Source: a virus
Direction: 5' to 3' (one strand)
Length of the DNA stretch: 49,429 nucleotides
IMG/VR virus record: IMGVR_UViG_3300044712_000473
Span: 1 to 49,429 of that record
Shown here: piece by piece, positions 1 through 49,429 of the stretch
Numbering within the stretch: position 1 is the first letter of the stretch
Layout: each line of letters starts with the position of its first letter
Position numbers and translations under genes: made by a program
Notes under the pieces: model-generated
What the model was told of the DNA's origin: nothing
Seen by the model: only the letters and a program-made list of their open reading frames with translations
Databases searched by the model: none

Positions 1-127
1 AGGCATATGACTTAGGCTAGGCCGACTGCTTAGGCTAGCTGCTTATGTGTAGTTTCCCATGCTCATTTCTTGGGCAAATTCTCTTAGCTTAATGCGTCGC
101 CGCTCCGGTCCCGTCAAGGCGTCCCCC
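1..127. repeat. 127-bp terminal direct repeat, left copy
   Basis: Bases 1-127 are identical to 49303-49429, read base by base at both ends. A repeat of exactly 127 bp matches a common maximum assembler k-mer, so the likeliest meaning is a circular or circularly permuted molecule whose contig overlaps itself by one k-mer. A true short terminal repeat cannot be excluded. The copy holds two CTTAGGCTAG direct repeats (11-20 and 29-38). Confidence 0.95.
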
Positions 128-5363: not shown

Positions 5364-5392
5364 TTGACATTTCGCAACAAGGATACTACATT
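5364..5392 (+). promoter_or_regulatory. Sigma70-type promoter for the SSB/nuclease block
   Basis: TTGACA at 5364-5369, a 17-base spacer and TACATT at 5387-5392. A perfect -35 with optimal spacing, in the 55-base gap before the gene at 5410, makes this one of the two clearest promoters in the window. It indicates use of the host's housekeeping RNA polymerase. Confidence 0.75.
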
Positions 5393-5409
5393 ACACCCAC
5401 GAGGAAAAC

Positions 5410-5649
5410 ATGAGCGAAGTTGATGACAACGAAAGAGTTACCCTCGCAGACAAAGGCGACCTAGTAAACTTCTACACTTGCTTGAAGAAGGAGGAGTTCA
5501 AAGAGGAGCTGAAAACAATTGTCTCTGGTATCAATGGTGCCATTGCTTTCTGGCATCCGGAAGGCAAGGAAGAAGCGTGGGCATTTAGCAGCCTTGTTGA
5601 AGCCAAGGATCTGGCTTACGCGCTGCTCAAGAAAGTGAGGGAGTCGTGA
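5410..5649 (+). CDS. Hypothetical protein, 79 aa
   Basis: First gene after the promoter at 5364, with CGAGGA as ribosome binding site. The small acidic helical protein has a FWHPEGKEEAWAFSSL core and no metal-binding motif. No family is recognised. Its TGA overlaps the GTG of the SSB-like gene, so both are probably made in fixed proportion and the protein may act with the SSB-like product. That partnership is inference. Confidence 0.7.
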   Translation: MSEVDDNERVTLADKGDLVNFYTCLKKEEFKEELKTIVSGINGAIAFWHPEGKEEAWAFSSLVEAKDLAYALLKKVRES

Positions 5650-6128
5650 AGCTAGGAGATTTCTCCAGCAAGAAGAAGTACGAAGCTGGTGATGTATGCC
5701 CAGAAGGAACATACGCAGCCGTGTTTGTAGACTGGATCGACAAGGGAACGCAGACTGGCAGCTATCAGGGTGGACCCGTCAAGACTAGGCGTGTGCTTGC
5801 CCTACGATGGCTCATGAGCCCAAAGAACACGAAGGGTCAGCACTTCATGATCGAGAAGTGGTACACCGCTTCCGACCACATCAAGAGCGGCCTAATCCAG
5901 ATGCTACAGATGTGGCGCGGAAGGAAATTCGAGACTGACGACGAACGAAGGAAGTTTGATCTTGATTCTCTCATCCTCTTCCCGGCAATGATTACCATTA
6001 GCCACGAGAAGAAGGAAGATGGAGGAACGAGAGCAAGCGTTGTCAGCGTAGTCCCACTCCCCAGTGGTATGGCTTGTGACATTGACACAAGCAACTACCA
6101 AAGAGTCAAGGATCGCAAGGTAGAATAA
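5646..6128 (+). CDS. Phage SSB-like OB-fold protein, 160 aa
   Basis: GTG start at 5646 overlaps the previous stop (GTGA). The pattern fits the phage single-strand-binding/DUF669-like group: GTYAAVFVDWIDKGTQTG (about residues 21-38), strand RRVLALRWLM, a KWYTASDHIKSGLIQML segment and the hallmark WRGRKFETDDERRKFDLDSL at about 90-109, followed by a beta strand ending ITISHEK. Such proteins coat single-stranded DNA during phage replication and recombination. The next gene is a RecB-family nuclease, and the DnaB helicase and RusA-like resolvase elsewhere complete a replication/recombination set. The single-strand-binding role is known for the family, not shown here. Confidence 0.7.
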   Translation: MKLGDFSSKKKYEAGDVCPEGTYAAVFVDWIDKGTQTGSYQGGPVKTRRVLALRWLMSPKNTKGQHFMIEKWYTASDHIKSGLIQMLQMWRGRKFETDDERRKFDLDSLILFPAMITISHEKKEDGGTRASVVSVVPLPSGMACDIDTSNYQRVKDRKVE

Positions 6129-6139
6129 AAGTAATACAA

Positions 6140-6229
6140 GATGGTGGATAGACGAGATTCGAAAGACTCGGAACAATTGACTGCCTAGCTAGCCATAGTG
6201 GCAGGACCGTGAAATCCCATCATCGGGTT
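6140..6229 (+). ncRNA. Structured RNA candidate A, three-way-junction-like
   Basis: The gap before the nuclease gene folds neatly by hand. GATGGTGG (6140-6147) pairs with CCATCATC (6217-6224), with one G-U pair, and closes two inner stems: CGAG/CTCG (6153-6156, 6167-6170) and CTGCC/GGCAG (6181-6185, 6200-6204). Two blocks, GGATAGACG (6146-6154) and CCGTGAAATCCC (6207-6218), recur in the same order at 7941 and 8046 in candidate B. It could be a cis-acting leader, a small RNA or a tRNA-derived relic. It fails tRNA criteria. No known class was recognised. Confidence 0.5.
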
Positions 6230-6241
6230 TACTAAACAAAC

Positions 6242-7039
6242 ATGTACACCAAAGATCTATTCGGTAAGCTCTCGCCCCCAGGCTATCGTGTCAAGAAAGG
6301 GTGGTACAAATTCGAGGGAGTTGAAGCCGAGACTCCTTCTGTTACTACCATCAATAAAGTCCTAAACAAATTCCAGCTCATCCCTTGGGCAGCGTGGTGC
6401 GAACGAGAGTTCGTAACCAAGATCGCAGCCGACGTTCACGACAACTACCGCTACTCATCCAGAGATTCCTACCTTGTGAGTCTTGGGATGAAGCTGGGTA
6501 GAGGCTATGGATACACCAACGAGATCTCACGAACCCAGAAGATTGGAGTTGAAACCCATGCGGCAATCGAAGCCTTCCTCAAAGATGGTACTGTTTCCGA
6601 ATGTGCTCTATTCGGTAAGTGGAAAAAATGGTGGGACGAAATGGTTCATGGAGGGCTACAACAGTATGTCCTTGAACAGACACTATATTCGCCTCGATAT
6701 AACTTTGCCGGAACGGCAGATCTCATTGGACAGCGTGGAGAAGGAACTATCATCATTGATTGGAAGACTTCAGAAGAAGTCAGGATCGAGCAGATCATCC
6801 AAATCGGCGGCTACCATGAAGCTCTCAAAGATCGAACGGGAATTGAAGCTGAAGGGTGCGTCGTATGCGTTCCAAGAGAAGAAGACCAGCCCGTCAAAGC
6901 CACCTACTTCACAGCCGCAGAAGCGGGACAGTTGGGGAAGATTTTCCTCGCAGTCAAAGCAGCGTGGGAAGCGGAACGAGAAGCCCAAGGAATTCTGAAG
7001 GCTGTGAAGAAGCGTGGCAAAGCCGGTAACGTGGGCTAA
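6242..7039 (+). CDS. RecB-family PD-(D/E)XK nuclease, 265 aa
   Basis: The exonuclease core is visible: GVETHAAIEAFL with H106 (motif I), E145 in VLEQTL, GTAD ending at D160, IIIDWKTS with D173 and K175 (catalytic D-x-K), and QIGGYHEAL (Q187, Y191, motif QxxxY). This order is the RecB/Cas4-like nuclease signature. Phage members resect DNA ends for recombination or degrade host DNA. It follows the SSB-like gene. No Shine-Dalgarno sequence precedes the ATG (the 15 bases before it are A/T-rich), and the structured RNA candidate A ends 17 bases upstream, which suggests unusual translation control. The 3' end overlaps the next gene by 26 bases. Confidence 0.85.
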   Translation: MYTKDLFGKLSPPGYRVKKGWYKFEGVEAETPSVTTINKVLNKFQLIPWAAWCEREFVTKIAADVHDNYRYSSRDSYLVSLGMKLGRGYGYTNEISRTQKIGVETHAAIEAFLKDGTVSECALFGKWKKWWDEMVHGGLQQYVLEQTLYSPRYNFAGTADLIGQRGEGTIIIDWKTSEEVRIEQIIQIGGYHEALKDRTGIEAEGCVVCVPREEDQPVKATYFTAAEAGQLGKIFLAVKAAWEAEREAQGILKAVKKRGKAGNVG

Positions 7040-7340
7040 GATTGACCGACGCAAGATCATCCCAGGAGACAAGTTACAAAACGAGATAGGGGATGTCTAC
7101 CTTTCGGAAGAAGGAATGAAGGGACTGAACCTAGCCCAGAAATTTTATCATGGTGAATCAAAGTCCTATGTAATTGATCGAGTCTTGCGTCGAGTCAACA
7201 TCCAGAAGGTCTACCTTCCGCTATCTCTAACAGCCCAGACGTTTACTTTCCTAAACGAAGAGAGCAAGAAGCGTGGCTACACAAGGGTAGAGGACTTGGT
7301 AGAAGCCACACTAGAAAGACTGAAAGATGGGCAATCCTAA
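7014..7340 (+). CDS. Hypothetical protein, 108 aa, GTG start
   Basis: The best frame begins at GTG 7014 inside the nuclease gene, with GAAG upstream. The protein has a basic N-terminal segment (WAKIDRRKIIPGDK) and a C-terminal helix with many charged residues (EESKKRGYTRVEDLVEATLERL), which resembles small DNA-binding helical proteins, but no defined helix-turn-helix can be claimed. Its end overlaps the next start by 14 bases. Confidence 0.65.
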   Translation: MAKPVTWAKIDRRKIIPGDKLQNEIGDVYLSEEGMKGLNLAQKFYHGESKSYVIDRVLRRVNIQKVYLPLSLTAQTFTFLNEESKKRGYTRVEDLVEATLERLKDGQS

Positions 7341-7524
7341 TACGCTACCGTGCCCGATTTGTTGGAACTACCCATTCGTTGAGGTGATGGAGAATGGGGT
7401 ACAGCGTTGTGTGTGTGGAGATGATTCGACCAGTCATATTCTGGTTGCCTTCCAAGGCAGGAACGAAGAGGAGGCAATCAACAACTGGAACAGGATCGTA
7501 AGAAAGGCGAAGACAAGACGATGA
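7327..7524 (+). CDS. Lar-like restriction-alleviation zinc protein, 65 aa
   Basis: LPCPIC at residues 7-12 (C9, C12), CVC at 28-30 and a C-terminal EEEAINNWNRIV segment match the Lar/YdaE-type layout of LPCPFCGG, a second cysteine pair and an AixxWNrR ending. Lar proteins were first described as antagonists of type I restriction, but many phage members are annotated only by similarity. The first pair lacks the usual glycines (CPICWN rather than CPFCGG). The next gene overlaps by ATGA. Confidence 0.7.
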   Translation: MGNPNTLPCPICWNYPFVEVMENGVQRCVCGDDSTSHILVAFQGRNEEEAINNWNRIVRKAKTRR

Positions 7525-7772
7525 CCAAGCGGAAAGATAAGTGGGAGTTCTTTGAGTGTGGACCAGATTACGTCTGGTACTACGGCAAGAAGCAGGTTGG
7601 CAGGATCTCTCTCAGGATTGAAGAACCAGACGCTGAGTTCCTTTGCTCGCTCTGGAACAAACAGCAGAACTGCTACAAAATTCTAGGTAAGGTTGACTCT
7701 CTTCAGAAAGCAAAAGAATACATGGAGTCCTTTACCTTTCAGAAGGCAACCACAATTGTGGATTTGGGTTAG
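7521..7772 (+). CDS. Hypothetical protein, 83 aa
   Basis: The start overlaps the Lar-like stop as ATGA. The product is aromatic-rich, with beta-prone segments (YVWYYGKKQVGRISLRI) and a C-terminal amphipathic helix (SLQKAKEYMESF). No family is recognised. The stop at 7772 borders the long structured intergenic region, whose outermost possible stem would involve the last bases of this gene. Confidence 0.65.
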   Translation: MTKRKDKWEFFECGPDYVWYYGKKQVGRISLRIEEPDAEFLCSLWNKQQNCYKILGKVDSLQKAKEYMESFTFQKATTIVDLG

Positions 7773-8085
7773 GCCTACCTGAGCCTTGGATCAGGCAGAG
7801 GAACAAGTAGTGCTGGCTGACCTCATGGTTCTTTGCTAGTTTGCCGACGCAGGGAATTGACTCTGCCGGTTGCGATCTCTTTGAACGCTGCTCCCAGGGC
7901 CAGCAACCTGGGGGTAGTAGATCGAATCCACGGGGGGAAAGGATAGACGCGAGAAGCGGTGGCGCCAGAGCTAACCAGTCGGGTATGACTCCCGGCTCCA
8001 TGCCAGCAATTAGCGGAACGATAGTGGTCGAAGTCATGACCGATCCCGTGAAATCCCCAACCCTCTGTACACATAGGAGACAAGC
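7773..8085 (+). ncRNA. Structured RNA candidate B in a 313-bp intergenic region
   Basis: No convincing gene fits here, and several stable stems do. CTGCTCCCAGG (7888-7898) pairs with CCTGGGGGTAG (7907-7917) over 11 positions including wobbles. GCAGGG/CTCTGC (7849-7854, 7861-7866), CCTGA/TCAGG (7778-7782, 7791-7795), GTCGGG/CCCGGC near 7978-7996 and an enclosing GCTAA/TTAGC are also present. GGATAGACG (7941-7949) and CCGTGAAATCCC (8046-8057) are shared with candidate A. The next gene has its own ribosome binding site (TAGGAGA), so this could be a free RNA or a leader. Class unknown. Confidence 0.5.
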
Positions 8086-8295
8086 ATGAGCGAATGGCAG
8101 AACATCTACTTCTGCTCGCCGGAACTCGTAGGGAAGATCGGCAGCCTGGCTCCTCTACCCTGCAAGATCTACGCTAGCGATAGGTTTGCGGAAGACTTCT
8201 GGATTGGGTTTGAGAGCGAAGATGAATTGGTCCGCTTCGTCAAGGCTGGCACCGACGCTCTGGTGAAAGAGTACGACAAGCACAAGGGGGAATAA
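8086..8295 (+). CDS. Hypothetical protein, 69 aa
   Basis: ATG 8086 follows TAGGAGA at proper spacing. The product is small, acidic and soluble-looking, with beta-prone NIYFCSPEL and FWIGFES segments and a C-terminal helix. No family is recognised. It is the first gene after structured region B, so it would be the gene controlled if B acts in cis. Confidence 0.7.
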   Translation: MSEWQNIYFCSPELVGKIGSLAPLPCKIYASDRFAEDFWIGFESEDELVRFVKAGTDALVKEYDKHKGE

Positions 8296-10831: not shown

Positions 10832-11383
10832 ATGCTAAGACTCTTCCTTCCAGACCAACCGCCTTCCGGCAAGAACTCCATCATCATCACAAAGCAGGGG
10901 CACCGTATCCCAGGCAAGCGTTTCGTTCTGTGGCGAGATAAGATGTTCGAAGCTCTCGACCTACAGATCAGCCGGGATCGGTGCCCTTACTTTACTTCTG
11001 AAGTAGACATAACGATCCATTACCAAAAGGGCGACCTCCGTCGTCGGGATGTACCCGGCATGGAGGACGCCCTTTTTCATTTGCTGGAACGCTATGGTGT
11101 GGTTCCAGATGATAAATTTTTTGTGAATGTTACATGGGTGAAAGGGTGGGCAGAGTATCCTGGGCTTTGGATACAGGTAGAGGAAGCATCACTATCGGTG
11201 CCTGTACCTTGGCAGCCGGCCCCAGATTTACTAGCACTTCGTACTGGTTCACTATCAGCAGATCTTCAGAAAGAAAGAAAGAGTATCCGCAGTGGCCTGC
11301 CCACCCAGCTAGAACTACTCGATCTCCTTCCTTCATCGGCATCGGCTCGCGTAGATCCTTCCAGTAAACGGGCTGGTAAGTAG
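10832..11383 (+). CDS. rusA: RusA-type Holliday-junction resolvase, 183 aa
   Basis: The first ~118 residues match RusA: PPSGKNS (9-15), then RRRD (70-73), E78-D79, GVVPDDKFF (89-97) and a closing strand GLWIQVE. RusA enzymes cut four-way junctions as dimers using conserved aspartates and lysine, here probably D73, D79, D94 or D95, and K96. Phages use them to resolve recombination and replication intermediates before packaging. About 65 residues beyond the usual RusA length have no RusA features and lie antisense to the convergent GroES-like gene (overlap 11130-11383), so the tail may be a read-through without function. TGGAAGG abuts the start. Confidence 0.8.
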   Translation: MLRLFLPDQPPSGKNSIIITKQGHRIPGKRFVLWRDKMFEALDLQISRDRCPYFTSEVDITIHYQKGDLRRRDVPGMEDALFHLLERYGVVPDDKFFVNVTWVKGWAEYPGLWIQVEEASLSVPVPWQPAPDLLALRTGSLSADLQKERKSIRSGLPTQLELLDLLPSSASARVDPSSKRAGK

Positions 11384-47534: not shown

Positions 47535-47616
47535 CCGACACACCCCAGACCTATCATTGCTGACCACCCAAGGCACCAAGAAGGCAACTTAATACCGAAG
47601 TCATCCGAACGCCTCA

Positions 47617-47660
47617 TAGCTGCCCCTCCCTGCCAAGAAACCCCCTTGGAGGGGCAGCTA
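47617..47660. repeat. 13-bp perfect inverted repeat
   Basis: TAGCTGCCCCTCC (47617-47629) pairs perfectly with GGAGGGGCAGCTA (47648-47660) around an 18-base loop. It begins 83 bases after the 47097 gene. There is no run of Ts after it, so it is not a standard terminator; it may block RNA polymerase in another way, be an RNA-processing site or belong to an origin. Confidence 0.75.
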
Positions 47661-47674
47661 CCTACACATGGCAA

Positions 47675-47900
47675 GATTTCCTAAGAAATCCCCTCTCCCT
47701 TCCCCCCCATACCCCCCTATCTTGTACCCTCCGGTTAATACCCTGATATAAAATACTAATAAGACTAATACTACAAGGGTAAGAGATATATATAAAGCTA
47801 GGGTCTACTAGGGTAAGAGTATTACCCCAATAAAGCTATTATACAAAAACCGGGTTCTGTATAATACAAAATTCACCTGTAAGTTTTTTTATTGGGTAGC
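47675..47900. other. AT-rich iteron and cruciform region, candidate replication origin
   Basis: Direct repeats of AGGGTAAGAG (47776-47785, 47810-47819), CTAGGGT (47798-47804, 47808-47814) and TACCCT (47725, 47739), alternating with AT-rich DNA. CCCAATAAA (47826-47834) pairs with TTTATTGGG (47888-47896), enclosing an inner stem ATTATAC/GTATAAT (47838-47844, 47859-47865). Also GATTTC-CTAA-GAAATC at 47675-47690. A DnaB helicase operon lies just upstream, which fits an origin. A pure structural role is an alternative. Confidence 0.45.
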
Positions 47901-48245
47901 TTGTGTGGCTATATGTCAGGGTTAGCGAGTCAGATGGGGCCCCCCGTAGGCCCTAGTGCCCAGCGCCCATTGGATAGCCCTAGCCTAGCCCTAACGATAC
48001 GGGCAACACAGGCCAGAGCGACCACTTACCTAGCGCATGCACGGGCAAATGCCTACCTATCAGCCACCTGGGACCTGCGTATGACCAGCACATGTCGGTT
48101 CCTACCCATTCTCTGGTGTATCCCATCATGGTGTATCCCCTACTGCTTAGTCCTATATACGGGCACATGAAAGAATGCTGTTCAGTCGGTTGGTTGCTGC
48201 CCTGGGTCCGGGTCCGGCGGGAGGACGGTCGGACGCCCCTGATGT

Positions 48246-49302: not shown

Positions 49303-49429
49303 AGGCATATGACTTAGGCTAGGCCGACTGCTTAGGCTAGCTGCTTATGTGTAGTTTCCCATGCTCATTTCTTGGGCAAATTCTCTTAGCTTAATGCGTC
49401 GCCGCTCCGGTCCCGTCAAGGCGTCCCCC
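49303..49429. repeat. 127-bp terminal direct repeat, right copy
   Basis: Identical to 1-127. Just upstream (49279-49291) stands CTAGCTGCGTATG, nearly equal to CTAGCTGCTTATG inside the repeat (35-47 and 49337-49349), so seam-proximal repeats continue outside the duplicated part. The last base, inside the C-run, cuts the hairpin loop described at 113-143. Confidence 0.95.

What the first reader, a model, noticed from the sequence alone, without database searches (positions are those of the whole stretch)
6140..8085. A pair of intergenic structured-RNA candidates sharing two sequence blocks
Region A (6140-6229) and region B (7941-8063 within 7773-8085) both contain GGATAGACG and, 61 or 105 bases later, CCGTGAAATCCC. 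In A these form a closed structure with an outer 8-bp stem and two inner stems. B has several strong stems as well as the shared blocks. Two copies in one phage point to an RNA family, possibly regulatory, or to degenerate tRNA-like elements. They precede a nuclease gene and a small unknown gene.
Basis: partly seen in the sequence, partly recalled or inferred. Interest (0 to 1): 0.75.

Follow-up and report, generated by a model that had tools for sequence, protein, structure and literature searches.

The report
Orphan paired phage leader-RNA candidates
Two short non-coding stretches of an unusual, complete phage genome share the same small blocks of sequence and sit just ahead of two genes, so they may be a pair of related control RNAs, but no relatives exist in the data searched and the RNA reading stays unproven.

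Summary
GGATAGACG (6146, 7941) and CCGTGAAATCCC (6207, 8046) occur exactly, in order, 61 and 105 bases apart. A shorter third block, ATAGTGG (6195, 8021), lies between them in both copies. Both stretches are non-coding on a codon test, lie on the strand of the flanking genes, and end 23 and 28 nt before a start codon. The ends of the blocks are complementary (GGAT/ATCC, ACG/CGT), so each copy can close a branched hairpin. Copy A folds better than shuffles on one strand only (z about -2.9). Copy B's shared core does not (z +0.3), although a separate hairpin upstream of it does (z -3.9).

The similarity is significant for this pair (A against shuffled B: 0 of 3000) but weak genome-wide: the same joint repeat turns up about three times in block shuffles. 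No relative was found in IMG/VR, 84,980 prokaryote genomes, 50,697 phages or PLSDB; every exact hit looked at lay in coding-type or unrelated sequence. No Rfam family or tRNA matched. The phage is an orphan, so covariation cannot be tested.

Best reading: two diverged leader RNAs of one phage that regulate or process early mRNA. A tRNA origin is not supported. Low to moderate interest.

The parts
6140..6224 (+). Element A: branched hairpin candidate closed by GATGGTGG/CCATCATC
   Evidence: fold z about -2.9 on + strand only, +0.4 on - strand; pair probabilities
6146..6154 (+). Block 1 in A, GGATAGACG
6195..6201 (+). Block 2 in A, ATAGTGG
6207..6218 (+). Block 3 in A, CCGTGAAATCCC
6181..6204 (+). 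Stable hairpin of A, CTGCC...GGCAG
   Evidence: pair probability about 0.98
7773..8085 (+). Element B region, 313-nt non-coding leader
   Evidence: no coding signal in any frame
7873..7924 (+). Long hairpin in the 5' part of B: CGATC...GATCG around GCTGCTCCCAGG/CCTGGGGGTAGT, loop GCCAGCAA
   Evidence: z -3.9 for 7870-7930; pairs at probability 1.0
7941..7949 (+). Block 1 in B, GGATAGACG
7977..7997 (+). Hairpin AGTCGGG/CCCGGCT; loop TATGACT can pair with loop 8030-8037 (ATGACT/AGTCAT, 6 bp)
   Evidence: sequence; pair probability about 0.4
8021..8027 (+). Block 2 in B, ATAGTGG
8026..8041 (+). Hairpin GGTC/GACC with loop GAAGTCAT, possible kissing partner of 7984-7990
   Evidence: sequence; present in MFE
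8046..8057 (+). Block 3 in B, CCGTGAAATCCC
6242..7039 (+). Gene downstream of A: PD-(D/E)XK exonuclease with weak Shine-Dalgarno
   Evidence: phrog_298 E 2.8e-25; anti-SD energy -3.2 kcal/mol
8086..8295 (+). Gene downstream of B: 69-aa unknown protein with a good Shine-Dalgarno (AGGAG)

Best explanation
A and B are two diverged copies of one cis-acting leader-RNA element in the early (+ strand) gene block of this phage. Each folds into a stem-closed branched structure whose neck carries the conserved blocks (GGAU/AUCC, small internal loop, ACG/CGU), while the arms have diverged, B having gained an insert with a possible loop-loop contact. The element sits 23-28 nt before the next start codon. 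The likely action is that a phage or host RNA-binding protein or RNase recognises the neck and so sets processing or translation of the downstream gene. Shown: exact blocks, order, strand, position, lack of coding, complementarity of the blocks. Inferred: transcription as RNA, common origin, recognition and regulatory effect.
For: Three ordered blocks; A against shuffled B 0 of 3000; both non-coding and on the strand of the flanking genes; block ends complementary, GGAU/AUCC at 0.65-0.89 in B; A folds better than shuffles on the transcribed strand only; both end 23-28 nt before a start codon; the exonuclease after A has a weak Shine-Dalgarno (-3.2) where most non-overlapping starts have about -5 to -12.
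Against: No relatives, so no covariation test. B's core is not more stable than shuffles. In A the favoured register pairs GATGGTGG/CCATCATC, and the conserved GGAU/AUCC pairs reach only 0.15-0.43; ACG/CGU is only 0.03-0.05 in B, where a shifted pairing is preferred. Joint repeats of this size occur about three times by chance genome-wide. No promoter-like site lies at A or B.
Confidence: 0.45

Rival explanations
1. The shared blocks are DNA sites: a partly palindromic operator or replication/recombination site bound by a phage protein, in two copies in the early region.
For: Blocks 1 and 3 form an imperfect inverted repeat GGATAGACG/CGTGAAATCC; both sit upstream of genes; B's core has no excess RNA stability.
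Against: Arm spacing differs strongly (61 and 105), unusual for one protein on a dyad; A's fold excess is specific to the + strand; no further single-block copies in the genome.
Confidence: 0.2
2. The likeness of A and B is chance: two unrelated intergenic regions that happen to share a 9-mer and a 12-mer.
For: Such joint repeats occur about 3 times in block shuffles of this genome and 7 times (5 distinct) in the real one; the A-B chain score does not stand out among all non-coding pairs.
Against: The pair-level test is strong (0 of 3000); both are non-coding, same strand, near-equal distance to a start codon, with complementary block ends; scaling to non-coding pairs gives roughly 0.02 expected (my estimate).
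Confidence: 0.25
3. A and B are degenerate tRNA-like elements or processing signals for RNase P or RNase Z.
For: A distant spring podovirus (L014) has a tRNA-like element in an early-gene spacer.
Against: No tRNA call or tRNA-family match in A or B; no T-arm and no cloverleaf found in A by inspection.
Confidence: 0.05
4. A and B are a new small self-cleaving ribozyme with a conserved neck.
For: Short branched RNA candidate with a conserved internal loop and variable arms, in a phage.
Against: No hammerhead CUGAUGA core on inspection; no ribozyme family matched; no covariation data.
Confidence: 0.05

Closest known systems
Rfam RF03001 leuA-Halobacteria RNA
   Same: Consensus carries GGAUAGAGGA and cCGuGAAAUUC, like the two blocks
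   Different: 13.7 bits against a gathering score of 47.9, E 0.69 over all families; no window match at E<=1; sub-threshold hits in two unrelated archaeal genomes reach 15-18 bits; a haloarchaeal leuA leader by name, with a much shorter interior
Phage and bacterial structured leader RNAs in general (kind described in PMC2864571 and PMC8040213, seen only as search results)
   Same: Intergenic, just upstream of a gene, stem-closed with conserved neck
   Different: Those classes rest on comparison over many genomes; here only two copies in one genome
GOLLD, ROOL and OLE ornate RNAs (PMC12286853, abstract)
   Same: Structured non-coding RNA outside the well-studied genomes; possible loop-loop contact
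   Different: Much larger (own knowledge); no Rfam match here
tRNA-like element of Caudoviricetes sp. ctLwi270 (L014, MW202554.1)
   Same: Structured stretch in an early-gene spacer, closed by a stem with a bulge
   Different: L014 element has a T-arm and an anticodon-like arm; A and B have neither

Membership tests
RF03001 leuA-Halobacteria | score above the gathering cut-off | tested here: not met
   13.7 against 47.9 bits in A, nothing in B; none at E<=1 in the window
RF03001 leuA-Halobacteria | lies upstream of leuA | tested here: not met
   downstream genes are an exonuclease and an unknown 69-aa gene
tRNA / tRNA-like | cloverleaf with T-arm | tested here: not met
   ARAGORN 0; no tRNA-family hit in A or B
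Known Rfam ribozymes and riboswitches | match at gathering score | tested here: not met
   none in the window; weak hits only
Conserved structured-RNA family | homologues with compensatory changes | tested here: inconclusive
   no homologues found; close relatives of the record may be left out of the collections
Cis-regulatory leader RNA | effect on downstream gene | not testable with these tools
   position only

The most novel reading that the evidence does not exclude
A and B are founding members of an undescribed phage RNA class with a conserved neck motif (GGAUAGACG / CCGUGAAAUCCC) acting as ribozyme, riboswitch or protein-bound regulator of early genes, tied to a poorly sampled lineage of podovirus-like phages.
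Probability: 0.15. Interest if true: 0.6.

Novelty: new member of a known kind. Interest (0 to 1): 0.28.

Why it matters
If real, it is a two-copy leader RNA of a phage lineage with no close relative in the collections searched, one copy ahead of a recombination-type exonuclease whose start has only a weak Shine-Dalgarno sequence. It would be a small new RNA element to test. As it stands it matters mainly as a seed for searches when relatives appear.

Tried and rejected
Exact two- and three-block scans of IMG/VR and of 84,980 prokaryote genomes. The hits looked at were chance, nearly all in long open frames and none with the A/B plan. Protein routes to relatives: exonuclease, DUF932 protein and TerL gave none in IMG/VR; DnaB alone and the DnaB alignment gave only relatives at about 23-41% identity, none with the blocks. 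One record (G029/L086) has a homologue of the protein encoded before A, followed by a nuclease-like gene, but its 68-nt spacer holds only a GC hairpin. Spring-water phages with that protein have spacers of 15-36 nt, so no conserved element there. BLAST of A and B against phages and of B against plasmids: chance matches or none. A third copy in the window: none. tRNA, hammerhead and RF03001 membership rejected as above. A type I-F CRISPR-repeat-like reading of CTGCC/GGCAG in A was rejected because the loop is 14 nt and not 5 (own knowledge of the repeat).

Full report
What is there. The window is a 49,429-base virus record with a 127-base direct terminal repeat, so it looks like a complete genome. 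Its terminase and portal genes place it among podovirus-like phages (SU10-type portal), with no close relative in 50,697 phage records. A + strand early block (about 1-11.6 kb) holds the two regions. A lies between a 160-aa unknown protein (5646-6128) and an exonuclease (6242-7039, phrog_298 and PD-(D/E)XK). B lies between two small unknown genes.

GGATAGACG and CCGTGAAATCCC are exact at 6146/6207 and 7941/8046, with start-to-start spacing of 61 and 105. ATAGTGG is a third shared block in order. A codon model trained on this genome's own genes gives no coding signal in either region. The ends of the blocks are complementary (GGAT/ATCC, ACG/CGT), so they can form the neck of a closed structure in both copies.

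How strong is it. A against shuffled B never reached the observed chain of blocks in 3000 shuffles, and a shared 12-mer alone occurs in 31 of 20,000 shuffles. Over the whole genome, though, a repeated 12-mer with a repeated 9-mer 30-130 bases upstream occurs 7 times, against 3.25 in block shuffles. Across all non-coding pairs the A-B score is not the top one. Restricted to non-coding pairs I estimate about 0.02 expected. The equal strand, the similar distance to a start codon (23 and 28 nt) and the complementarity add weight, but were noticed after the fact.

Folding. A is more stable than shuffles on the + strand (z -2.9) and not on the - strand (z +0.4); about 2% of 120-base windows in the genome reach z <= -3. 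B's core is not more stable than shuffles (z +0.3); the separate hairpin at 7873-7924 is (z -3.9). In A the favoured outer stem is the 8-bp GATGGTGG/CCATCATC; in B it is GGAU/AUCC. B also has a possible 6-bp loop-loop contact (7985-7990 with 8032-8037) and a possible 7-bp one (7811-7817 with 7899-7905), both read from the sequence.

Relatives. None found. Exact-block scans of IMG/VR and of one genome per 84,980 prokaryote species returned chance matches, nearly all inside long open frames. BLAST of A and B against phages and of B against plasmids gave chance matches or nothing. Protein-led searches reached only distant phages, and the equivalent spacers inspected carry nothing similar. The tools warn that records very near this one may be left out.

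Known families. No tRNA, no Rfam match at gathering score. The best weak hit of A is RF03001 leuA-Halobacteria, whose consensus contains strikingly similar blocks, but E is 0.69 across families, the score is far below cut-off, and sub-threshold hits in unrelated archaeal genomes score higher. I treat it as coincidence and record it as a lead.

Mechanism. The best reading is a pair of diverged leader RNAs whose neck is recognised by a protein or RNase that tunes processing or translation of the next gene. The exonuclease start after A has a weak Shine-Dalgarno (-3.2 kcal/mol) while most other non-overlapping starts in this genome have stronger ones, which would fit a leader that influences initiation; that step is inference. 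A DNA site and plain chance are the main rivals. A tRNA origin is not supported.

Verdict. A correct and careful observation of a plausible but orphan element; ordinary in kind, unproven as RNA.

Noticed in passing
window 1-127 and 49303-49429: Exact 127-base direct terminal repeat: the record looks like a complete genome.
   Followed up: partly
L014:1953-2056 (- strand), MW202554.1: tRNA-like element in a spring-water podovirus: T-arm GCGGG-TTCGAGG-CCCGC, anticodon-like arm TGACA-GTGATGC-TGTTA, outer stem GTAGGTGGGT/ACCCCCTAC; not called by ARAGORN, best Rfam hit tRNA-Sec at 14.7 bits.
   Followed up: partly
L014:9804-11459: Annotated terminase large subunit appears to carry an intein-like insertion: extra residues in the alignment ending ...VVSGYLSRNC.
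   Followed up: no
window 11025-11080: Strong inverted repeat followed by T-run (AAAAGGGCG...CGCCCTTTTT), terminator-like, inside the RusA-like resolvase gene 10832-11383; lowest fold z of the genome on both strands.
   Followed up: no
window 47535-48174: 640-base region in which I found no clear gene, with a strong hairpin GCTGCCCCTCC...GGAGGGGCAGC near 47620-47660 and AT-rich simple stretches; candidate replication or control region.
   Followed up: no
window 5392-5418 and 8068-8094: Two gene starts share 78% of 27 bases around the ribosome-binding site and ATGAGCGAA.
   Followed up: no
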